A stretch of DNA of 46,091 nt, taken from NCBI GenBank assembly GCA_026709505.1, contig JAPOSW010000087.1, forward strand, positions 1 to 46,091. The letters run 5' to 3'. This DNA is from Gammaproteobacteria bacterium. GTDB lineage: Bacteria; Pseudomonadota; Gammaproteobacteria; Arenicellales; Poriferihabitantaceae. The position numbers and the translations under genes were made by a program. The notes under the pieces are model-generated. The model saw nothing but the letters and a program-made list of their open reading frames with translations. It was not told where the DNA came from and made no database searches. Shown here piece after piece: positions 9,962 to 18,956 of this stretch. How positions within the stretch are numbered: position 1 is the stretch's first letter; the number at the start of each line of letters is the position of its first letter.

Positions 9962-10039
9962 TCGACATTTAAGTGCTGACAAGCCAAAAGTCTTTCCCAG
10001 ACTCCAGAATTTGGCCTTTACAGCCTTTGCATATTGAAT

Positions 10040-10261
10040 CTAGCTTGAAGATTTTTTCAAGTTGCAATTCTTGCAAAGCATTTGCAGATTCTTGTCGACA
10101 GTCAAGCCTCCCTCTCTCCAAGGTATGATGTGATCTCCCTCCATCTTGTTGAACGTAAATTTGTTGTCGCAGATCTTGCATATGCCTTTCTGTCTTTCGT
10201 AGGCTCTGGTCTTTTGGTTTTTTGTGAAAGTGAGCAGATTGATAGTGATTCCTATTGTCAT
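10040..10261 (-). pseudogene. C-terminal HNH fragment of a DUF262/GmrSD-like nuclease
   Basis: The frame encodes about 73 aa ending KKSSS. It holds a complete HNH/zinc module: KGICKICDNKFTF with C28 and C31, MEGDHIIPWREGG with the catalytic D-H at 43-44, and LQMLCKNCN with C63 and C66. This is the form found at the C-terminus of DUF262-HNH (GmrSD/GmrS-D-like) restriction proteins, where it is preceded by several hundred residues. Here the same frame runs only a few codons upstream before a stop, and no N-terminal DUF262 part can be found, so I read it as a truncated remnant. It lies at the left edge of the sulfur-modification operon. Confidence 0.65.
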
Positions 10262-10728
10262 GACCCATGCTATAATTTTGCGGCATCATTAATATACGCG
10301 ACTGCTTAGGAGGCTGACCTGAATTAATTTTCCATCTGACTGGGACTGTGTTTCAAAATCCGGATGGAAAGTGCGCCTGAACCTGAAGTGCTGACTGTCA
10401 AGATGTCTGCGGCGGTCGAGGCCTGTCTTGACTAAAACTCGGGAGGTCTATCTGAGCGGCATGAGAATCGTTTGCCATCGGAAAGCTGGGAAATTAAATT
10501 AGACTTGGATACTTAGAATGAACAGCTATGAGTAATTATAAATTGTTGAGGTCATGAACTCTTTTATATTCAACTATAGCCTGCTTCAGGGGGGTAATTT
10601 TAAAAATTTTGGTTGGGCTTATATGCCCATGGCTTCTGCATGTTCAATTAAGCATTTTCTTTCTGTACGATAATTCTGCTGTAATGGTGGAGATCGTAAA
10701 AAAACAAAATATAGGGGGATTAAATAGT
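10262..10728. other. AT-rich leader region before the sulfur-modification operon
   Basis: No convincing gene was found. An inverted repeat TTTCCATC (10329-10336) / GATGGAAA (10363-10370) lies beside the HNH remnant and may be debris of a past insertion. Closer to the operon the sequence becomes very AT-rich. A weak promoter-like pair TTCAAT / TACGAT with 17 bp spacing lies near 10649-10677. I see no Shine-Dalgarno for the ATG at 10684. Confidence 0.3.
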
Positions 10729-11997
10729 TTGAATCGAGCTGGATGTGTCGAAAATATCAGGGATGAGGCACATATCACCGTCTATCTTGACTATGCTGCA
10801 ACGACGCCTGTTGATGCTCGTGTTATCTCGACAATGTCTAAATACTTGGGGGTTGATGGGATTTTCGGTAACCCAGCATCGCAATCGCACGGTTTCGGAC
10901 GTGAGGCCGAGAAAGCCGTTGAAAAAGCACGGAAGCAAGTAGCAAATCTTATTGGTGCTGATCCATCTGAAGTCATATGGACTTCTGGAGCTACTGAATC
11001 TATCAATTTAGCGATCAAGGGTGTAGCTCATGGCAATAAAAATCTCGGAAAACATCTGGTTACATCAAGTCTTGAGCACAAAGCGGTTCTTGATACATGC
11101 AAGCAACTTGAGCAACAGGGTTTTGAGGTCACCTACCTCCACCCTGACATGCAAGGATTAATATCCCTTAAGAGTGTGAAGGAAGCACTAAGGGACGATA
11201 CAATTCTTGTGTCTCTGATGCATGTAAATAACGAGGTCGGGACTATAACAGATATCAGGGCGATCGGAGAGATAACTCAACCCCGCGGCATTATATTTCA
11301 TGTGGACGCTGCACAGAGCGTAGCACGTCTGCCGATTGATGTGAAATCAATCAAAGCGGATCTAATTTCACTTAGCAGTCATAAGATGTATGGACCGAAG
11401 GGCGTTGGGGCGCTATATGTACGCCGATCTTCCCATATTCATATAGAGCCGCAAATACATGGTGGTAGTCAGGAGCATGGATTGCGCCCTGGTACACTGG
11501 CCACACATCAGGTGGCAGGGATGGGCGAAGCTTCGGATTTGATTCTTGAGTATCGTGCACGGGATACGATAAGATATGAAACACTTGATTCTCGTTTGCT
11601 TAACCATCTCAGGGCTATTGAATGTATCACTATAAACGGTAGCCAAGCGAACCGTGTTGCAGGAATTCTGAATATCGGATTCGCCTGCGTAGAGAGTGAG
11701 TCACTTATGATGTTGTTAAAAGATTTGGCTATTTCTTCAGGGTCAGCGTGTACATCTTCTGACATAGAACCCTCTCACGTTTTGCTGTCTCTAGGTTTGT
11801 CTGAAGACATGGCAAACTGTTCCGTCCGCTTTAGCCTCGGTAGGTTTACAACTATAGAAGAAATTGATTTTGTGGCAGACCGTGTTTACCATACCGTCGA
11901 TGCATTACGTCAACTGTCCTCACAGTGGCAAAGTCTTCGTGGAGATATTCATACAACGGATTCCTTTTCTCAAGATAGGGATGCATTGACATCATGA
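10729..11997 (+). CDS. Cysteine desulfurase, DndA/IscS-type; first gene of the sulfur-modification operon
   Basis: It is a class V PLP enzyme. The fold starts at VYLDYAATTPVD, then has FGNPASQSHGFGREAE, WTSGATESINLAIKG, the PLP-Lys motif SLSSHKMYGPKGVGALYV, QIHGGSQEHGLRPGT, and the active-site loop SSGSACTSSDIEPSHVLLSL with the persulfide Cys. This is the IscS/NifS/DndA layout, in which the loop Cys passes sulfur to an acceptor. I chose the TTG at 10729 because AGGGGGA (10713-10719) lies 9 bp upstream and it leaves a natural N-terminus (422 aa); ATG 10684 would add 15 residues but lacks an SD. It overlaps the next gene by 4 bp (ATGA), so the likely sulfur acceptor is the DndC-like protein. 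A housekeeping class V enzyme lies at 24.8 kb, so this copy looks dedicated. Confidence 0.85.
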   Translation: MNRAGCVENIRDEAHITVYLDYAATTPVDARVISTMSKYLGVDGIFGNPASQSHGFGREAEKAVEKARKQVANLIGADPSEVIWTSGATESINLAIKGVAHGNKNLGKHLVTSSLEHKAVLDTCKQLEQQGFEVTYLHPDMQGLISLKSVKEALRDDTILVSLMHVNNEVGTITDIRAIGEITQPRGIIFHVDAAQSVARLPIDVKSIKADLISLSSHKMYGPKGVGALYVRRSSHIHIEPQIHGGSQEHGLRPGTLATHQVAGMGEASDLILEYRARDTIRYETLDSRLLNHLRAIECITINGSQANRVAGILNIGFACVESESLMMLLKDLAISSGSACTSSDIEPSHVLLSLGLSEDMANCSVRFSLGRFTTIEEIDFVADRVYHTVDALRQLSSQWQSLRGDIHTTDSFSQDRDALTS

Positions 11998-13196
11998 ACA
12001 AGGCTACCCTGGTGAAGATAGCACCAGTCGAACAGCAAAATAAAATATTGCGAGCTATTGAGCGATTCGACTTCGCAATGAAGGTTATTCGGAAAGAATA
12101 TCTGCGCAAGCATAGTGATCCCTGGGTCGTAGCATATTCCGGTGGCAAGGACTCAACCCTTTTACTCCAGCTCATTTGGGAAATGCTGTTGTCTCTTCCT
12201 GAGCATAACCGTCAACGCAAGGTATATGTTATAGGCAATGACACGCTTGTTGAATCTCCACTGGTTATACGGCATCTCAGAGATACAATTAGTACAATTG
12301 CTTATGCCGCCGCGGCCGCAGGATTGCCGATTAAAACACAGATTACGAAACCACATATTGATCAGACATTTTGGGTAAACGTTATCGGCCGCGGCTATAT
12401 ACCCCCGACACGTAATTTTCGGTGGTGTACTGATCGGATGAAAATCGTCCCAACCAGTCAATTGCTCAAAAGGCTTATCAGTATACATAAGCGTACTATA
12501 CTGCTGGTGGGTACACGTAAGAGTGAGTCCGTGAATCGCCGTCGTAACATGTCTAAGCATGGTGTGTCGGGAGTCAAGATGAATCCGCATAGTTCCGTTG
12601 ACGGCTGTCGCATGTTTGCTCCACTTGCAGAGTTTGAAGATGATGATGTTTGGGTGCTTCTGTTGCAACGGAAGCCACCATGGGGGGGGGCACATCGCAA
12701 CCTGATCACGCTCTATCGAAATGCCGGTGGAGGAGAATGCCCACTGGTATTGACCAAGGATGATGCACCATCCTGTGGAACCACATCTCCAAGATTCGGC
12801 TGCTGGACATGCACTGTCATAAGTAAGGATCGAAGCTTACGGGGGTTGATCGATTCTGGACACGAGGATGCAAAGAACTTCTCTCGCCTATTCAACTTCC
12901 GAGAATGGCTAATCGAATTGCGGGAAGAAAATTCCAATCGTGAAAATGTGCGTAGAGACGGAAATTCGCGATATCGTACCGATGGTACTCTGATCATGGG
13001 ACCCTTCAAGCTTGAGGTTCGCAGAAAAATCCTTAAACGGTTGCAGGAATTAGAACAAGAGATCGGACAGAGACTCATTTCCACATCGGAACTCGATGTC
13101 ATCAAGGACATTTGGCACCGTGATCGGGTTCGTGAAGATTGCCGAGATGCCTTGTCTGCCACAGTTACTCGGGAAACTGATGAGATTCTAACTTGA
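11994..13196 (+). CDS. DndC/SspD-type PP-loop sulfurtransferase (PAPS-reductase fold)
   Basis: The 400-aa protein has the ATP-pyrophosphatase loop SGGKDST at residues 49-55. It also has NFRWCTDRMK (C145), which is typical of the PAPS-reductase/DndC family, and a cysteine set C249, C261, C270 and C273 (GECPL, APSCG, RFGCWTCTVI). That set matches the [4Fe-4S] ligand region of DndC. LVGTRKSES lies between them. In Dnd and Ssp systems this protein activates the DNA backbone phosphate with ATP and installs sulfur supplied by the cysteine desulfurase. The ATG overlaps the stop of the desulfurase gene by 4 bp and the stop overlaps the next gene by 4 bp. DndC assignment firm; the chemistry in this operon is inferred. 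Confidence 0.88.
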   Translation: MNKATLVKIAPVEQQNKILRAIERFDFAMKVIRKEYLRKHSDPWVVAYSGGKDSTLLLQLIWEMLLSLPEHNRQRKVYVIGNDTLVESPLVIRHLRDTISTIAYAAAAAGLPIKTQITKPHIDQTFWVNVIGRGYIPPTRNFRWCTDRMKIVPTSQLLKRLISIHKRTILLVGTRKSESVNRRRNMSKHGVSGVKMNPHSSVDGCRMFAPLAEFEDDDVWVLLLQRKPPWGGAHRNLITLYRNAGGGECPLVLTKDDAPSCGTTSPRFGCWTCTVISKDRSLRGLIDSGHEDAKNFSRLFNFREWLIELREENSNRENVRRDGNSRYRTDGTLIMGPFKLEVRRKILKRLQELEQEIGQRLISTSELDVIKDIWHRDRVREDCRDALSATVTRETDEILT

Positions 13197-14986
13197 TTAC
13201 TCAACAAAATACGGTAATTCAAGCGGGGGCCATGGTGTTTTCTGAATTGTTTCGTCAAGGGCGATTTGAAGTGCCGTGGCACCAGCGTTATTACGATTGG
13301 AGTGCTGACCATGTTCGAGCACTACTGCAGGATATTGATGATGCGATCAAGGAGGGCCGTGATTGTTATTTTCTAGGAGCTATTATGCTGGTGGAAAATG
13401 GGGAGAATCAGTGGAAGATAAATGATGGTCAGCAACGTATGATAACGATATCATTGATTTGTTCTGTTTTGTGTCGTCGATTCATTGAAGAATCATACAG
13501 TTCTCAGCGTGTGGGGCTTGCATTGCAAATGTTGTTTGATTTGAGTGGCAATCAATGCTGCACCCCGGATAGTGCGGAAGAATATGTTCCCCGGATAACA
13601 CCACCAAAGAACGACATGATGCGTTACAAACAGATGATCCGAGGTAATACTATTGGTTCGAACGGTTTACTTACGACCGCATGGTTTGAGATTGAAAAAT
13701 TTTTTTCCCCCATGAGTTTGGAAAAAGTAGAGTTGTATTTCGACTTTCTGCTTCAAAAACTTGAGATTGCATATTTAAGGATTCCTTATCATGTAGACCC
13801 CAACGCCATCTATGAGACTATCAATTGCAGAGGCAAACCACTTGAAGACTTGGACTTGATTCGTAACTATTTCTACTCCCACTTCAGCGAAACAGATGAT
13901 TCAGAAAAGATGAATTCCGTACATGATGGATTGGAAAGAGTTCGCATAACAATTCCCCATACTAGGAAGGCATCTGACTATCTACGATGTCACTTGCAGT
14001 GTAAATATGGTTTTCTGCCAAAAGACGACTTCTACCGCAAAGTTAGGGAAGTGATAAGGAATCAGAAAGATAAATCTCATGACAAGAAAGAATCTTCAAC
14101 AAACTATGTATTTAATCTCATTCAACAACTCGCCACTCCAGAAAATCTGCAACTCTTCAAAGTCATAACGGCTTCAAGTCCTGATCCAGAATTCATCAGA
14201 GCATTCGAAGTTGCATCTGGTACAACCAATTCGCTAAGAAACCTGACGGTTTTCCTTCGAGAGCTGAACAGTTATAAAGTCAGTCTTCCCCTAGTTTTTG
14301 CAATTTTGATTTGCTACATGCGTGAGACGGATGGCCGAAAGAAAAAACGAATTGCTAGAATTGCAAATAGAAACCTTCATCGGCTGGCAACTTTTATTCT
14401 CAGAACAGCGTTTGCCGCACCAAAATTTGAACCGTCGCATTTTGAGACGGAGTTTTCGAACTACGCCCAGAATATTACGTGCTCCCATAACCTCCCGGAT
14501 GAAAATTTTGCCCAGTTCTTGCAAAATTGTGATCGTACAGCATTTGGAATTTTGAATGATTCCAGATTCAAGTCAGCAATGCTTGAAAAGGGTCAGATGA
14601 CCGGAGCCGTAAGAGTCAGGCATTTTCTAGTCGGAGTAAACAGCAAGCTACAACCCGATGCAAAATTAATAAATGAGCGACAGTGTAGTATTGAGCACAT
14701 ATTTCCAAAGTCGCCGAAGCATTGGGTTGGTTGGCCGGAATTTAAGGATGTCGATCAATCCGACTGGATTCAGAGAATCGGCAACCTGACGCTCATGGGA
14801 GTGGCGGACAACAAACCCGGAGAGAAATACAACGGAAGCTTTACTAAGAAATGTCAGAGTTACCTTGATAGCAGTATTAAACTTACACGTAAATTAGGCG
14901 AGCATGATTACTGGAGCCCGGATAAGATCATAGAAAGAGAAGAGGAGATGGTGGAATATGCTACTGATGTCTGGACGTTCAAGTGA
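13193..14986 (+). CDS. DUF262-DUF1524 (SspE/GmrSD-like) modification-linked nuclease
   Basis: At 597 aa it begins at a TTG whose TTGA overlaps the upstream stop; a start at ATG 13232 would cut off part of the domain. The N-terminal DUF262 domain shows VPWHQRYYDW at 27-36 and the catalytic DGQQR at 78-82, the motif used for NTP hydrolysis by SspE and GmrS. The C-terminal DUF1524 His-Me-finger region has IEHIFPKS (E501-H502), then IGNLTLMG with N531 and a later N/K-rich KYNGSF. SspE is the known restriction partner of Ssp phosphorothioation, sensing PT DNA through DUF262. Here the gene lies inside the modification operon, immediately after the DndC gene. Confidence 0.82.
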   Translation: MITQQNTVIQAGAMVFSELFRQGRFEVPWHQRYYDWSADHVRALLQDIDDAIKEGRDCYFLGAIMLVENGENQWKINDGQQRMITISLICSVLCRRFIEESYSSQRVGLALQMLFDLSGNQCCTPDSAEEYVPRITPPKNDMMRYKQMIRGNTIGSNGLLTTAWFEIEKFFSPMSLEKVELYFDFLLQKLEIAYLRIPYHVDPNAIYETINCRGKPLEDLDLIRNYFYSHFSETDDSEKMNSVHDGLERVRITIPHTRKASDYLRCHLQCKYGFLPKDDFYRKVREVIRNQKDKSHDKKESSTNYVFNLIQQLATPENLQLFKVITASSPDPEFIRAFEVASGTTNSLRNLTVFLRELNSYKVSLPLVFAILICYMRETDGRKKKRIARIANRNLHRLATFILRTAFAAPKFEPSHFETEFSNYAQNITCSHNLPDENFAQFLQNCDRTAFGILNDSRFKSAMLEKGQMTGAVRVRHFLVGVNSKLQPDAKLINERQCSIEHIFPKSPKHWVGWPEFKDVDQSDWIQRIGNLTLMGVADNKPGEKYNGSFTKKCQSYLDSSIKLTRKLGEHDYWSPDKIIEREEEMVEYATDVWTFK

Positions 14987-16359
14987 TTTCGGACGATATC
15001 AATCGACTTCGGAATCTTGCCGAAACTGAACTATTAGTACCCGCACCACTTCATGAATATCAGTGGGAAGGAGTTTCCTTTCTATTCAGATCCCACGCGG
15101 CGTTGCTGGCTGATGAAATGGGGCTTGGCAAGACGGTCCAAACTGCTGTTGCATTAGCTCTTCTCATGAATGGACGAAGCGATGTTAATCGGGTATTGAT
15201 CGTCGCACCTGCATCACTGACAATGAATTGGGTTTCAGAGCTCTCAATCTGGGCTCCTTCTTTGGCAGTCAGGCTCATACATGGGTCTGCGAGCAATAGG
15301 GAAGCTTTCTATCTGTTACCAATACCTGTTCTTGTGGGTTCTTATGAGCAGATCCGACAAGATGGTTTGGAACTTATTCCATTGAATACATTCGACCTTA
15401 TTATTCTTGATGAGGCTCAACGCATAAAAAACAAGAATTCCACAACAGCATTGGCCTGTCGAATATTGCAGGGAAAGCGTGCTTGGGCTCTTTCAGCCAC
15501 GCCTCTTGAGAACAAAGATGATGATGTTAAATCTATTCTCGGTTTTCTTGATCCGTCGATCTGTGAGGACCTTTCGGATACACATCTTATTGAGAAACTA
15601 AGATCAATGATGCTGAGAAGGCGGAAATCGGATGTCAGAACCGAACTCCCTCCTGTTATTTATCAGGATCTTGTACTTGCTCTTTCAAAACCGCAGAGAA
15701 AGGTGTATGACGAGCTATGGCTAAATCGTATAGCCGCCATCAGTACAGGCAACACTGAAACAGATAGTAGTGTTGCCCTGCTTGGATTGATCACCAAATT
15801 GAAAATTGTCTGTAATCTGGATGAAGAAGCGAATGTTTCATCGAAGTTGGACGCTCTTAAGGAAGTCATCGAAAGCGCTGGAGAATCTGCTAGGATTCTT
15901 GTGTTCTCGCAGTTTGTCAAGACGATCAAGTGGATTTCCGAGAGAATTGAACTACCTCATGGTCTCCTGATAGGTTCAATGTCTCTTGAGGATAGGCAAA
16001 AGAACGTAGATGAATTTAGGAACAACAAGTCTCCGCGTTTGCTCCTGATATCTCTTCGGGCTGGGGGAGTGGGTCTGAACTTGGGTGAGGCCACTCATGT
16101 AGTTGTATTCGACAGATGGTGGAATCCCGCTGTTGAAGCTCAAGCTATATATCGTGCACATCGCTTTGATCGTGCTGGTCCTTTGCATGTTGTACGCTTC
16201 CTGATCGCTGATTCAATTGAGGAACAGATTGCTGATATACTTGATCAGAAAAGTGCTCTGTTTGACTGTGTCATTGAGTCTGTTGAGACTAGTTCCTATT
16301 CTTTTACGAAGAAAGAGCTTATGCAGATTCTGAAAATTTCGGACAGAGATCTGTCTTAA
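14983..16359 (+). CDS. Minimal SNF2-family helicase/translocase
   Basis: The 458-aa protein starts at a GTG in a GTGA overlap with the upstream stop. It consists of little more than the two RecA-like lobes: HEYQWEGVSFL (Q-motif), LADEMGLGKTVQT (motif I, residues 42-54), APASLTMNW (Ia), ILDEAQRIKN (II, DEAQ at 143-146) and ALSATPLEN (III). The second lobe has ILVFSQF, LRAGGVGLNL (V) and WWNPAVEAQAIYRAHRFDR (VI). No HIRAN, RING or extra N-terminal domain is visible. SNF2 proteins move along dsDNA and are recurrent in restriction systems, including Dpd-type ones. Here it may scan or remodel DNA for the nuclease parts encoded beside it. Confidence 0.88.
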   Translation: MISDDINRLRNLAETELLVPAPLHEYQWEGVSFLFRSHAALLADEMGLGKTVQTAVALALLMNGRSDVNRVLIVAPASLTMNWVSELSIWAPSLAVRLIHGSASNREAFYLLPIPVLVGSYEQIRQDGLELIPLNTFDLIILDEAQRIKNKNSTTALACRILQGKRAWALSATPLENKDDDVKSILGFLDPSICEDLSDTHLIEKLRSMMLRRRKSDVRTELPPVIYQDLVLALSKPQRKVYDELWLNRIAAISTGNTETDSSVALLGLITKLKIVCNLDEEANVSSKLDALKEVIESAGESARILVFSQFVKTIKWISERIELPHGLLIGSMSLEDRQKNVDEFRNNKSPRLLLISLRAGGVGLNLGEATHVVVFDRWWNPAVEAQAIYRAHRFDRAGPLHVVRFLIADSIEEQIADILDQKSALFDCVIESVETSSYSFTKKELMQILKISDRDLS

Positions 16360-16391
16360 ATCGAAAACCAAACCTAAACGGAAAAATTTAC

Positions 16392-17216
16392 ATGGCAAAA
16401 ATTATTGAATATCGTGATATACCACTTGATCAATTGACAATTGGGAAAGGTCAGGCACGTACGCAGGATATTGGCAAGGGTATTGATGAGCTGGCTACAA
16501 GTATTGATGTCCAAGGATTACTTCAACCAATTATCGTCTGTCCTGCACAGGAATCCGGTAAATGGGAAATTCTTACTGGTCAGAGACGATTTTTGGCGCA
16601 TAGGAAATTGGGAAAACAAACTATCTCGGCAGCTGTACTTGATCAACGCGCCCCCGAGGGCGAAGCCAAGGCAATTTCGATCACAGAAAACCTGATGCGT
16701 CGAAAGTTGTCTGGAAAGGAACTGACGGATGGAATTTTGTATTTGTACAATATTTATGGAACCATTAGGGCTGTCGTACAAACTACCGGTTTACCGTACA
16801 AGGATGTAAAGGATCATATTAAATATCCACGACTGTTGCCAGAATTGAAACGTATGGTGGATAATCATGAAATCGATATTAATGCTGCTGTAAAAGCACA
16901 AGATGCAGCGGTTGGCTACGATGTTGAGCCGGACCCGGAAATTGCAATCACACTTGCCAAGGAGATGGCTTCGATGACTGGTGTTCAGAGAAAAAAACTT
17001 GCTAAAACCCGCAAAGAAAATCCTGAGAAACCCATTGACGACATAATTGAGGAATCGAAAACTGGGTCAAGAGTAACCCAGATAATAGCGACGGTTACTC
17101 AAGATACACACGATGCCCTTCAACAGTTTGCAAATAGTGAGGAAACAACACAAGACGAGGCTGCAACTATGCTTATTGAAGAGGCATTGGTAGAGCGCGG
17201 ATTTTTGGAAGGATGA
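16392..17216 (+). CDS. ParB-N-domain protein
   Basis: The 274-aa protein starts 32 bp after the SNF2 stop, the only real gap in the operon. The N-terminal ParB/Srx domain has IPLDQLTIGKGQARTQ and GIDELATSIDVQGLLQPIIV, and then the nucleotide-binding box TGQRRFLAHRKLG at residues 62-74 (ParB GERRxxA). ENLMRRKLSGKE at 99-110 follows. A helical middle part is ParB-HTH-like. The C-terminus (VTQDTHDALQQFANSEE...AATMLIEEALV) resembles a ribbon-helix-helix or DNA-binding tail. DndB and the Dpd protein DpdB are other modification-linked proteins of this general fold, but I do not see the DndB DGQHR motif. Possible roles: CTP-dependent DNA clamp, regulator, or nuclease. Confidence 0.75.
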   Translation: MAKIIEYRDIPLDQLTIGKGQARTQDIGKGIDELATSIDVQGLLQPIIVCPAQESGKWEILTGQRRFLAHRKLGKQTISAAVLDQRAPEGEAKAISITENLMRRKLSGKELTDGILYLYNIYGTIRAVVQTTGLPYKDVKDHIKYPRLLPELKRMVDNHEIDINAAVKAQDAAVGYDVEPDPEIAITLAKEMASMTGVQRKKLAKTRKENPEKPIDDIIEESKTGSRVTQIIATVTQDTHDALQQFANSEETTQDEAATMLIEEALVERGFLEG

Positions 17217-17947
17217 CCCCAGTGATGCGGGGCTTAAGTCCGTTGGAACTCGGACGCCTTCGCATTTCTGTGGGATATGGAACAAATAAGAAAGGGCGTC
17301 CACTTTCCCCTATCGAGGTGGGGCTCTATCTTCGCCGTGCACTGGATGCCGGGGAAACGCTTAGAGATTGTTCGAGGGCAATACAGCTTAATGGAACAGG
17401 ACATATTGGACGTTTCCTGCGTATTCTGGCATTGCCTAGTGATCTTCAGCATCTGATCAACTGGGGATCTGGTAGGGACTTCATTAGCTTTTCTTCTGCA
17501 GTTGAGTTGGTCAATCTGGAAACGGCTGACGATCAACGCGCAGTTGCTGAATCGATTATGGAAACTCATCTGAATAAAACCGAAGTCAGACAAATAGTGC
17601 AGTTGAGAAATCGGGCAGGACATCCAATTTCAGATTGTATTTCGGAAATATTAGGCATGCGGACAATAATTGAAAAGCGTTATGTCTTTATCGGTTCGAT
17701 CAAGGATAAGAATGTCCAGGATTTCCTCATAAAATTAACGCAAATGGAGCGGGATTCGATTCTCGACTCATCTCTCCAACGTCTTGGCTTTAGCGAGGTT
17801 TCGGGCCGACTGGGAAAACAGTTTTTCACTTTGGTGGGAAGGGAGCATTTTAATGAGTCAATGAGATGCGTTGGCAAACAAAATATTGAGCAAAGACTTC
17901 GATCTCATATCAGCAAGGAGATAGAAAATGTCAGCCCAGATAGTTGA
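17213..17947 (+). CDS. KorB/ParB-HTH-like protein
   Basis: The 244-aa product is not matched to a named family. Its first half reads like the central HTH domain of ParB/KorB proteins: PLSPIEVGLYLRRALDAG, RDCSRAIQLNGTGHIGRFLR, ILALPSDLQHLINWGSG, FISFSSAVELVNLE, and LNKTEVRQIVQLR. It lacks a ParB N-terminal domain, which the preceding gene supplies, so the two look like a split ParB. ATG 17213 overlaps the upstream stop, but GGAAGG (17207-17212) sits better with GTG 17222 or ATG 17225. The second half (residues about 140-240) has no recognisable motif. It overlaps the MBL gene by 20 bp. Confidence 0.55.
   Translation: MTPVMRGLSPLELGRLRISVGYGTNKKGRPLSPIEVGLYLRRALDAGETLRDCSRAIQLNGTGHIGRFLRILALPSDLQHLINWGSGRDFISFSSAVELVNLETADDQRAVAESIMETHLNKTEVRQIVQLRNRAGHPISDCISEILGMRTIIEKRYVFIGSIKDKNVQDFLIKLTQMERDSILDSSLQRLGFSEVSGRLGKQFFTLVGREHFNESMRCVGKQNIEQRLRSHISKEIENVSPDS
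17915..17920 (+). promoter_or_regulatory. Strong Shine-Dalgarno for the MBL nuclease gene
   Basis: AAGGAG lies 7 bp before ATG 17928, inside the end of the upstream coding sequence. It fixes the start of the MBL gene and is the best SD in the operon, so this product may be made independently of translational coupling. Confidence 0.7.
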
Positions 17948-18956
17948 TGTGCTTGCAAACGGGACCGTTTGCCTAGGCCCAGAAGTGGTATGTGATGGAT
18001 TTGCCAGCGGTTATCCATATAGAGTCCAAACACATATACATGATGATCATATGAGGGGATTCGATACAAGCAAGGGATTACAAGACTTGTTGATGAGTCA
18101 TGAAACCTATGACCTTCTGGTAGCGGAGCTCAACGCAGATCTTGAATATCGCGATAATCTTCATCCGATTCATCGAGGTGCTGAACATACTCTCAAAAGC
18201 GGTTCAAAGCTATTTCTTTTACCTTCCAACCACATGCTTGGTTCGTGCCAAGTCATGCTAACAAAACCGGATGGACTAAAGATCGGTTATTCAGGGGATT
18301 TCGGCTGGCCTCTTGATCAAGTGATAAAGGTTGACGAACTTGTTGTGGATAGCACTTATGGAGGGCCTAATAGTGTGCGAAATTATACGCAGGAGGAGGC
18401 TGAAGAGTGCCTGTTGAGTACCGTTTGTGAACGATTGCCTCACGGTTCCGTACATATACGTGCTTACCGGGGAACAATTGAACGGGTATTACAGGTGCTT
18501 TACGGTAGCGTAAATGTGCCTATTCTGGCAAGCACACGACTTATTAGGGAAGTAGGAGTTTATCAAAAGTACGGCTTTGCTATAGGAGAACTGTATACCC
18601 TTGATTCTGATGTTGGACGCTCTGCCATAAAAGAACGATCTTATATCCGGCTTTACTCAAAGGGAGATGGGTTCGGCAATGAACTGATTGAAGGCACTAC
18701 TATCACATGCAGTGCATTCATGGTTGATAGCAATCGCCCCCGCAAAGCTTATTCAGAGCGAGCATATAGTGTTGCATTATCCAATCATGCGGATTTTGAT
18801 GGAACGTTAGCTTATATCGAATCTACAGGGGCCCGAAGAGTGATAACCAATAATACGCAGAACCACGGATGGGAGTTGGCTATTGCTATTAATAATCACC
18901 TTTCAGGTGTTCATGCCCAACCTTCTACGAACAATCTTGGGCCGCGCTGGGGTTAA
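17928..18956 (+). CDS. Beta-CASP-like MBL-fold nuclease (ligase-associated exonuclease-like)
   Basis: The 342-aa protein carries the MBL core HIHDDH at residues 36-41 (H-x-H-x-D-H), then LPSNHMLGSCQVM (H102), IGYSGDFGWP (D124), and LVVDSTYGG (D141). Further on are TCSAFMVDS and the C-terminal LSNHADFDGTLAYI with ARRVITNN. This order fits the beta-CASP/SNM1 nuclease branch, in particular the bacterial DNA-ligase-associated exonuclease type, which starts in the same way. Such enzymes cut DNA or RNA from an end. As last gene of the operon it could supply the DNA-processing step for which Dnd and Ssp use other proteins. The family call is good; the role is inferred. Confidence 0.75.
   Translation: MSAQIVDVLANGTVCLGPEVVCDGFASGYPYRVQTHIHDDHMRGFDTSKGLQDLLMSHETYDLLVAELNADLEYRDNLHPIHRGAEHTLKSGSKLFLLPSNHMLGSCQVMLTKPDGLKIGYSGDFGWPLDQVIKVDELVVDSTYGGPNSVRNYTQEEAEECLLSTVCERLPHGSVHIRAYRGTIERVLQVLYGSVNVPILASTRLIREVGVYQKYGFAIGELYTLDSDVGRSAIKERSYIRLYSKGDGFGNELIEGTTITCSAFMVDSNRPRKAYSERAYSVALSNHADFDGTLAYIESTGARRVITNNTQNHGWELAIAINNHLSGVHAQPSTNNLGPRWG

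What the first reader, a model, noticed from the sequence alone, without database searches (positions are those of the whole stretch)
10729..18956. Candidate unrecognised sulfur-based DNA modification-restriction system
One operon has seven genes with overlaps of 4, 4, 4, 4 and 20 bp and a single 32-bp gap. Gene order is cysteine desulfurase (DndA/SspA-type), DndC/SspD-type sulfurtransferase, DUF262-DUF1524 (SspE-like), SNF2 helicase, ParB-N protein, KorB-HTH protein, beta-CASP-like MBL nuclease. Known Dnd systems need DndB-E and use DndFGH; known Ssp systems use SspBCD with SspE or SspFGH. Here only the sulfur donor and sulfurtransferase and an SspE-like effector match. The remaining four genes replace DndB/D/E and SspB/C. 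This gene set does not match any Dnd or Ssp architecture I know.
Basis: partly seen in the sequence, partly recalled or inferred. Interest (0 to 1): 0.95.

Follow-up and report, generated by a model that had tools for sequence, protein, structure and literature searches.

The report
Two-module sulfur-marking DNA defence operon
A seven-gene operon, found in the same order in bacteria of several phyla, joins enzymes predicted to mark DNA with sulfur to a separately inherited four-gene set of predicted DNA-binding, DNA-moving and DNA-cutting proteins that likely attacks unmarked DNA, a combination that our searches did not find described.

Summary
The operon is widespread: DndC, GmrSD and the SNF2-ParB-ParB'-MBL genes stand together in 19 loci of several phyla, colinear in 18, with the desulfurase in 15. 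It has two parts. Desulfurase-DndC-GmrSD is inherited together, and SNF2-ParB-ParB'-MBL is inherited together, but with different histories (Mantel within-block p<=0.0008; AU test rejects a shared tree both ways). In one locus the parts are divergently transcribed. In eight further loci the second part (SNF2 seen in five) goes with canonical dnd genes and no GmrSD in the fetched stretch. Eleven of 18 searched window-type genomes show no DndD, DndE or SspB over cut-off, so the sulfur part probably works without them. I read it as a new variant of phosphorothioate-based defence. Sulfur in DNA and phage defence are untested. No description turned up in the libraries and papers searched.

The parts
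10729..11997 (+). Cysteine desulfurase (IscS/DndA/SspA type), predicted sulfur donor; sulfur block
   Evidence: Aminotran_5, IscS equivalog above cut-off, PADLOC SspA 526 / DndA 523 bits. PLP-lysine motif SSHK and catalytic-cysteine motif SSGSAC (motif roles recalled). Found in 15 of the 19 window-type loci; absent from L013, L023, L031; L021's fetched stretch starts inside dndC. TTG start uncertain.
11994..13196 (+). DndC-family sulfurtransferase (PP-loop ATPase, predicted Fe-S), short form of 400 aa; sulfur block
   Evidence: TIGR03183 above cut-off. C145, C249, C261, C270, C273 kept in 27 of 27 aligned DndCs; GGKDS in 27 of 27, the Ser before it in 26 of 27 (one gap). Window-type DndCs are split from the other DndCs tested by a branch of 0.70 with support 100.
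13193..14986 (+). GmrSD (DUF262-DUF1524), DndI/SspE-like NTPase with HNH nuclease; sulfur block
   Evidence: PF03235+PF07510. Profile matches DndI crystal structure 9jfl E 4.7e-28 and SspE 6jiv E 1.4e-15. DGQQR in 18 of 19 rows (one gap), H502/N531/N547 in 19 of 19.
14983..16359 (+). SWI2/SNF2 ATPase core without extra Pfam domains; four-gene block
   Evidence: PF00176+PF00271. Walker A stretch DEMGLGKTV identical in 24 of 24 rows.
16392..17216 (+). ParB-like protein: ParB/Noc CTPase domain, HTH, predicted C-terminal ribbon-helix-helix; four-gene block
17213..17947 (+). ParB/Noc-type HTH DNA-binding protein lacking the CTPase domain; four-gene block
   Evidence: HTH_ParB. AF2 model pLDDT 92.6. 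Noc DNA-binding domain 6y93 TMt 0.84, although no Foldseek hit reached E 0.001.
17928..18956 (+). Metallo-beta-lactamase / beta-CASP nuclease-like protein; four-gene block
   Evidence: HxHxDH (H36, H38, D40, H41), H102, D124, H287 in 28 of 28 rows. Profile matches aCPSF1/FttA, SNM1A and CPSF73 structures.

Best explanation
This is a two-module operon: a sulfur block (desulfurase, DndC, GmrSD) predicted to mark host DNA with phosphorothioate and check it, joined to a separately inherited SNF2-ParB-ParB'-MBL block that likely attacks unmarked invading DNA and that elsewhere goes with canonical dnd genes. Predicted steps: (1) the desulfurase passes sulfur from cysteine to DndC, which inserts it into the DNA backbone. 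(2) GmrSD, the only DNA-acting protein co-inherited with DndC, works at the same sites, most likely as a phosphorothioate-gated nickase like DndI or SspE; whether its nick also serves sulfur insertion is open. (3) The ParB clamp, loaded through its own HTH and RHH domains and the HTH-only partner, closes on DNA with CTP and hydrolyses it poorly (GQRR for GERR). (4) It holds the SNF2 translocase and the MBL nuclease on DNA that lacks the mark. Shown: gene content, motifs, order, recurrence, the two inheritance blocks, and the pairing of the second block with dnd genes. Inferred: all biochemistry, target, order of events and the defence role.
For: DndC, GmrSD and the four-gene block together in 19 loci, colinear in 18, desulfurase in 15. 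Two co-inheritance blocks over 14 complete loci: within-block rho 0.53-0.77, between -0.01 to 0.35. Of all 35 splits into three and four genes the observed one scores best (0.475, next 0.245). Mantel within-block p<=0.0008, and the AU test rejects the other block's tree for both data sets (p 2.7e-5 and 7e-57). L024 has the blocks divergently transcribed and each with a different sister locus. Eight loci carry ParB-ParB'-MBL (SNF2 seen in five) with dnd genes and no GmrSD in the fetched stretch. 11 of 18 genomes have no DndD, DndE or SspB over cut-off. Catalytic residues intact. GmrSD resembles DndI and SspE, and DndI is an experimentally shown phosphorothioate-sensing nickase (PMC11662687, passages). 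The GQRR residue matches the E of GERR in Noc; in B. subtilis ParB the E78Q mutant closes as a clamp but fails to hydrolyse CTP (PMC8494293, passages).
Against: To my knowledge no characterised DndC or SspD works without an ATPase and a nicking or DNA-binding partner (DndD/DndE, SspB/SspC), and none of these is in the operon. Co-inheritance of GmrSD with DndC fits a writer subunit as well as a reader. Seven of 18 genomes, the host included, do hold SspB, and two hold DndD and DndE, so help in trans is possible there. Two of the eight between-block Mantel values for desulfurase and DndC are under 0.05 (MBL with desulfurase 0.007, with DndC 0.021), so the blocks are not wholly independent. No phage or plasmid carrier was found, nor a shared perfect palindrome in the gaps as a loading site for the clamp. 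The DNA preference of the MBL protein is not settled: its nearest structures include RNA nucleases. Monophyly of the dnd-linked blocks is not rejected (AU p 0.17), so the pairing with dnd may have arisen only once. Most loci are metagenome bins (25 of 26).
Confidence: 0.58

Rival explanations
1. One reading: GmrSD alone is the restriction enzyme, and SNF2 (ATPase), ParB-RHH and HTH protein (DNA binding) and MBL (nick) stand in for DndD, DndE and SspB/SspC in sulfur insertion.
For: Characterised phosphorothioate writers use an ATPase and a nicking or binding partner (partly recalled; DndE and SspB nicking in PMC9239217, passages). The ParB protein has a predicted RHH domain, and DndE is described as two RHH domains (PMC10853773, abstract). 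The DUF262-DUF1524 relatives met in the papers read are restriction effectors.
Against: ParB-ParB'-MBL co-occurs with a full dndC-dndD-dndE set in seven loci, where no replacement is needed. SNF2, ParB, ParB' and MBL correlate weakly with DndC (rho 0.17-0.27) while GmrSD correlates strongly (0.77).
Confidence: 0.15
2. Not a DNA backbone mark: DndC and the desulfurase carry out another sulfur chemistry (for example on a base, an RNA or a signal molecule) that controls the two nucleases.
For: PP-loop sulfurtransferases act on many substrates (established knowledge). No DndD, DndE, SspB or SspC match is listed for the operon proteins, and 11 of 18 genomes show none of DndD, DndE and SspB over cut-off.
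Against: DndC is above the DndC equivalog cut-off and keeps all five cysteines. The four-gene block is shared with canonical dnd loci, which points to the same mark.
Confidence: 0.15
3. The window-type sulfur block uses DndD/DndE or SspB/SspC encoded elsewhere in the genome.
For: The host itself holds canonical dndBCDE with a DndA-like desulfurase (C99), a PbeA/PbeC pair (C89) and two SspB loci.
Against: 11 of 18 searched genomes show none of DndD, DndE and SspB over cut-off, among them two whose record title says chromosome (L011, L016). SspC was not searched.
Confidence: 0.06
4. A DNA repair, segregation or regulatory operon rather than defence.
For: ParB/Noc folds and SNM1-like MBL proteins also serve segregation and repair.
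Against: Patchy distribution (1 of 369 genomes in the class, the own one; 6 of 84 in the phylum of G022), low G+C island, block exchange and linkage to DndC/DndI-type proteins are typical of defence systems.
Confidence: 0.06

Closest known systems
IscS-DndBCDE-DndI (PMC11662687, passages)
   Same: Desulfurase, DndC and a DUF262-DUF1524 NTPase/nickase of about 596 aa; profile match to DndI E 4.7e-28.
   Different: No DndB, DndD or DndE match among the operon proteins; extra SNF2-ParB-ParB'-MBL block.
SspABCD-SspE
   Same: Sulfur donor plus PP-loop enzyme plus DUF262-DUF1524 protein.
   Different: DndC not SspD (384 against 28 bits); no SspB or SspC among the listed hits; GmrSD is closer to DndI than to SspE.
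Canonical DndABCDE, with DndFGH or PbeABCD
   Same: DndA-type desulfurase and DndC; ParB-ParB'-MBL occurs beside dndCDE elsewhere.
   Different: DndD and DndE missing in the window type; no DndF/G/H or Pbe model among the PADLOC hits listed.
Short DndC with DndD-like ABC ATPase and FtsK/HerA (plasmid and phylum loci)
   Same: Nearest DndC relatives outside the window type in the tree, also short (355-447 aa).
   Different: They keep a DndD-like ABC ATPase (280 bits over the DndD cut-off in L089) and an FtsK-like protein; no GmrSD, SNF2 or MBL gene seen in the stretches shown.
Sponge thaumarchaeal dndA/C-like genes with DUF262-DUF1524 'dndB-like' genes (PMC6790972, section 13)
   Same: Possibly an earlier sighting of a desulfurase-DndC-GmrSD set.
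   Different: The four-gene block is not mentioned in that section; whether it is present was not tested here.

Membership tests
Dnd modification system | DndC sulfurtransferase | tested here: met
   TIGR03183 345.2 bits over cut-off 290.4.
Dnd modification system | DndD and DndE at the locus | tested here: not met
   None of the seven window proteins matches DndD or DndE; none seen in the 13 of 19 window-type loci scanned with DndD/DndE queries.
Dnd restriction (DndFGH) | DndF, DndG, DndH | tested here: not met
   No DndF/G/H model among the PADLOC hits listed for the seven proteins; for SNF2 only the best 25 of 43 and for GmrSD the best 25 of 30 families were shown.
Ssp system | SspD, SspB and SspC | tested here: not met
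   Gene 2 scores 384 bits as DndC and 28 as SspD; no SspB or SspC among the listed hits (same caps).
DndI/SspE effector family | DUF262 with DGQQR plus DUF1524 HNH | tested here: met
   PF03235+PF07510; motif counts; 9jfl and 6jiv profile matches.
DndI/SspE effector family | Phosphorothioate-responsive NTPase and nickase activity | not testable with these tools
   Needs purified protein.
Dpd (7-deazaguanine) system | DpdA transglycosylase-like protein | tested here: not met
   No such domain among the seven proteins' hits; the DpdE hit is the SNF2 helicase region.
PbeABCD | CxC ABC ATPase (PbeC) and HKD nuclease-helicase (PbeA) | tested here: not met
   Neither among the listed hits of the operon proteins; both are elsewhere in the host at C89.
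BREX type 4 | PglZ, BrxC and DUF4007 | tested here: not met
   No such domain among the listed hits; BrxP only 49 bits for gene 2.
ParB/Noc/KorB CTP-clamp family | ParB_N fold with CTP-binding motifs | tested here: met
   PF02195 over cut-off; GxRR and ENxxR kept, E to Q in GERR.
ParB/Noc/KorB CTP-clamp family | CTP binding and clamp closure | not testable with these tools
   Biochemical.
Ligase-associated MBL exonuclease (TIGR04122) | Score over the equivalog cut-off | tested here: not met
   66.2 bits, cut-off 325.
Any phosphorothioate system | Sulfur in DNA | not testable with these tools
   LC-MS/MS needed.

The most novel reading that the evidence does not exclude
GmrSD has taken over the DNA-opening job of DndD-DndE and SspB-SspC, giving a minimal three-protein phosphorothioate writer that nicks with its own restriction-type nuclease; and SNF2-ParB-ParB'-MBL is a portable executioner, a ParB clamp trapped on DNA that delivers a beta-CASP nuclease to DNA without the sulfur mark, exchangeable between this writer and DndCDE.
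Probability: 0.25. Interest if true: 0.9.

Novelty: new variant of a known kind. Interest (0 to 1): 0.8.

Why it matters
If it writes phosphorothioate, it does so without the ABC ATPase and RHH core held to be central to Dnd and without the SspB nickase, which would be the smallest set for sulfur insertion that I know of. The four-gene block would be a new kind of partner for sulfur-marked DNA, to my knowledge the first in which a ParB-type CTP clamp guides a nuclease, and one that goes with more than one writer. Both claims can be tested by expressing the two blocks apart.

Tried and rejected
Rejected: 'the four genes replace DndB/D/E'. Rejected: 'the short DndC is a mark of loci without DndD'; short DndCs of 355-447 aa also stand with DndD-like ATPases and FtsK. 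Rejected for most searched genomes: dependence on DndD/DndE/SspB in trans.

Led nowhere: viral contigs with MBL, DndC and ParB profiles (pattern matches but no relatives); plasmids with MBL (21, none), SNF2 (103, none), GmrSD (102, one weak hit at 27.9% over 46%) and ParB (49, weak matches under 60% identity, most annotated as partition proteins); plasmid DndCs (48) all under 60% identity; phages with MBL (104, none); E. coli genomes (22, none); search for shared perfect inverted repeats in core-gene gaps and operon edges (82; recurrences only between the similar loci L015 and L017); Pfam scan of ParB C-termini (106: RHH or ParG hints below cut-off in 3 of 10), later supported by structure (111); solved structures for DndC (41, 100, none). 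One origin of the dnd-linked blocks was not rejected (98). Not tested: an empty site in close relatives; SspC in the genomes.

Rows dropped: L020's genome is not held, so 18 of the 19 window-type genomes were searched. L027 is cut and untyped, and its genome (G016) is left out of the counts. L021 is decayed (broken gmrSD and SNF2) and left out of the distance tests. The distance and AU tests use the 14 loci with all seven genes full length. In one search 13 of 19 window-type loci were scanned for DndD/DndE. In one search the regions of 13 of the 15 other genomes with DndC hits were fetched.
Full report
Observation. Seven ORFs on the + strand fill 10729-18956 with junctions of 4, 4, 4 bp overlap, 32 bp gap, 4 and 20 bp overlap. 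Families: desulfurase, DndC, GmrSD (DUF262-DUF1524), SNF2, ParB_N, ParB-type HTH and MBL. The last three have no good match in PADLOC 2023 (one at 13.8 bits, none, none). The island has 44.4% G+C against 50.8 and 52.2% around it, and lies between a mechanosensitive channel gene and pyruvate kinase.

Distribution. A profile of the MBL protein (21 rows) found 26 loci in genome contigs by pattern scan; with the window and one more from a phylum search (L109) there are 28. By content: 19 have DndC, GmrSD and the four-gene block (window type: window, L011-L018, L020-L026, L028, L029, L031), colinear in 18; 8 have dnd genes and no GmrSD in the fetched stretch (dnd type: L019, L030, L032-L036, L109); 1 is cut and untyped (L027). 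Record titles of window-type loci name Gammaproteobacteria, Pseudomonadales, Rhodobacteraceae, Dehalococcoidia, Binatia, Thermoanaerobaculia, Acidobacteria, Gemmatimonadota, Dadabacteria, Rhodothermales and Bacteroidota; 25 of the 26 records are metagenome bins, the other being Mycobacterium sp. MFM001 (L035, dnd type). Fourteen of the 19 have all seven genes full length. The desulfurase is found in 15 (cut in L012), missing in L013, L023 and L031, and unknown in L021, whose stretch starts inside dndC. The system is rare: 1 of 369 genomes of the class (the own one); among 398 of the phylum 16 have a DndC match at E 1e-40, but only the own reaches the window level (740 bits, next 353); 6 of 84 in the phylum of G022 by MBL; 1 of 148 in the phylum of G006 by DndC (G006 itself).

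Two blocks. Pairwise protein distances over the 14 complete loci correlate within desulfurase-DndC-GmrSD (0.59-0.77) and within SNF2-ParB-ParB'-MBL (0.53-0.76) but little between them (-0.01 to 0.35). Of all 35 possible splits into three and four genes this one scores best, 0.475 against 0.245 for the next. Mantel p within blocks is at most 0.0008. Between blocks it is 0.007 to 0.54, with the only values under 0.05 for MBL with desulfurase (0.0068) and with DndC (0.0208). Removing L017, the nearest relative of L015 (77-95% identity by gene), keeps the pattern. Trees of the concatenated blocks conflict: the sulfur-block data reject the other tree (delta lnL 470, AU p 2.7e-5) and the reverse (delta lnL 209, AU p 7e-57). 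L024 has the two blocks divergently transcribed, and its sulfur block is sister to L029 while its other block is sister to L028, both at support 100.

The four-gene block belongs with sulfur systems, not with one writer. In seven dnd-type loci ParB-ParB'-MBL goes with dndC-dndD-dndE: in one direction in L032, L034 and L035 (in L035 with about 4.7 kb of other genes between), in opposite directions in L030, L033, L036 and L109. The eighth, L019, shows a DndE reading frame directly upstream of SNF2 at the contig start (the DndE model rings at the matching coordinates of G009). DndD and DndE are over their cut-offs in the six dnd-type genomes other than G009 that were searched, and DndC, DndD and DndE in L109. 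SNF2 is seen in five of the eight; L030's contig starts just before ParB, and L033 and L035 show none. The seven DndCs seen in these loci fall with canonical Dnd lineages, L035 with the host's own canonical DndC (91), while a branch of 0.70 with support 100 splits the window-type DndCs from all others in the tree, the nearest being short DndCs. A single origin of the dnd-linked blocks is not rejected (AU p 0.17).

Self-sufficiency. Over curated cut-offs, DndD is found in 2 of 18 searched window-type genomes (G000, G008), DndE in 2 of 18 (the same), SspB/DUF4007 in 7 of 18 (G000, G003, G008, G010-G013); 11 of 18 have none. Two of the eleven carry 'chromosome' in the record title (L011, L016). 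Under the cut-off, the DndD profile touches two of the eleven, G001 (62.5 bits) and G015 (21.6 bits). The DndD cut-off is reached even by the ABC ATPase of a short-DndC/FtsK locus (L089, 280 bits), so such a partner would probably have been seen. SspC was not searched, and incomplete bins can hide genes.

Reading. The parsimonious view is that the four-gene block does one job in both kinds of locus. Where dndCDE is complete it is not needed as writer, so I take it as the executing part, with the ParB clamp as platform, SNF2 as motor and MBL as nuclease. That leaves desulfurase-DndC-GmrSD as the marking and checking unit of the window type. Whether GmrSD is only a reader, as DndI is, or also gives DndC the nick that DndE or SspB would give (archaeal DndE nicks DNA, PMC9239217, passages) is open; I give the second, together with the executioner role, 25%. 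All biochemistry is inferred.

Literature. Ten full-text searches listed no paper whose title or abstract start describes the combination; two searches listed 15 of 77 and 12 of 199. In the main text of the 2024 reappraisal of Dnd (PMC10853773; abstract, sections 16 and 17 and passages) MBL, lactamase and beta-CASP do not occur. The 2026 BREX survey (PMC12839542, passages) also has neither MBL nor lactamase. PMC6790972 (section 13) reports low-similarity dndA and dndC with DUF262-DUF1524 'dndB-like' genes in sponge thaumarchaea, possibly an earlier sighting of the sulfur block. PMC7848895 (passages) reports phosphorothioation as more prevalent in sponge-associated thaumarchaea. NCBI already names some close homologues DndC, so the gene is known even if the system is not. 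Subscription papers and preprints are mostly not in the library, so priority is not settled.

Noticed in passing
window 9969-10290 (-): A reading frame of some 80 residues resembling an HNH endonuclease (NKMEGDHIIPWREGGLTVDKNLQMLCKNCN) just upstream of the operon, bounded by stop codons, perhaps a remnant (the likeness is by eye).
   Followed up: partly
L037 (G000:C99), L070 (G000:C89), G000:C94 and C127: The host also holds canonical dndBCDE with a DndA-like desulfurase, a PbeA/PbeC pair and two DUF4007 (SspB) loci, each next to a class V aminotransferase gene: a heavy load of sulfur systems.
   Followed up: partly
L021 1064-9881: Decayed copy: broken gmrSD and SNF2, and what looks like an IS21-type istA/istB pair inserted between the HTH gene and mbl.
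   Followed up: no
L026 10673-12601 (-): A second GmrSD-like gene downstream of the operon on the other strand.
   Followed up: no
L036 5667-6920 (+): A DndB gene (PF14072 over cut-off) directly upstream of the SNF2-ParB-ParB'-MBL block.
   Followed up: partly
L028 9703-10965 (-): A weak DndB-like protein (33 bits) just downstream of a window-type operon.
   Followed up: no
L069 5060-7870: Plasmid copy of a short DndC split in two, with transposase-like genes between the pieces (by eye).
   Followed up: no
L030 4200-5927 (+): A 576-aa gene between MBL and dndE with a DpdB-like (ParB superfamily) match of 33.5 bits.
   Followed up: no
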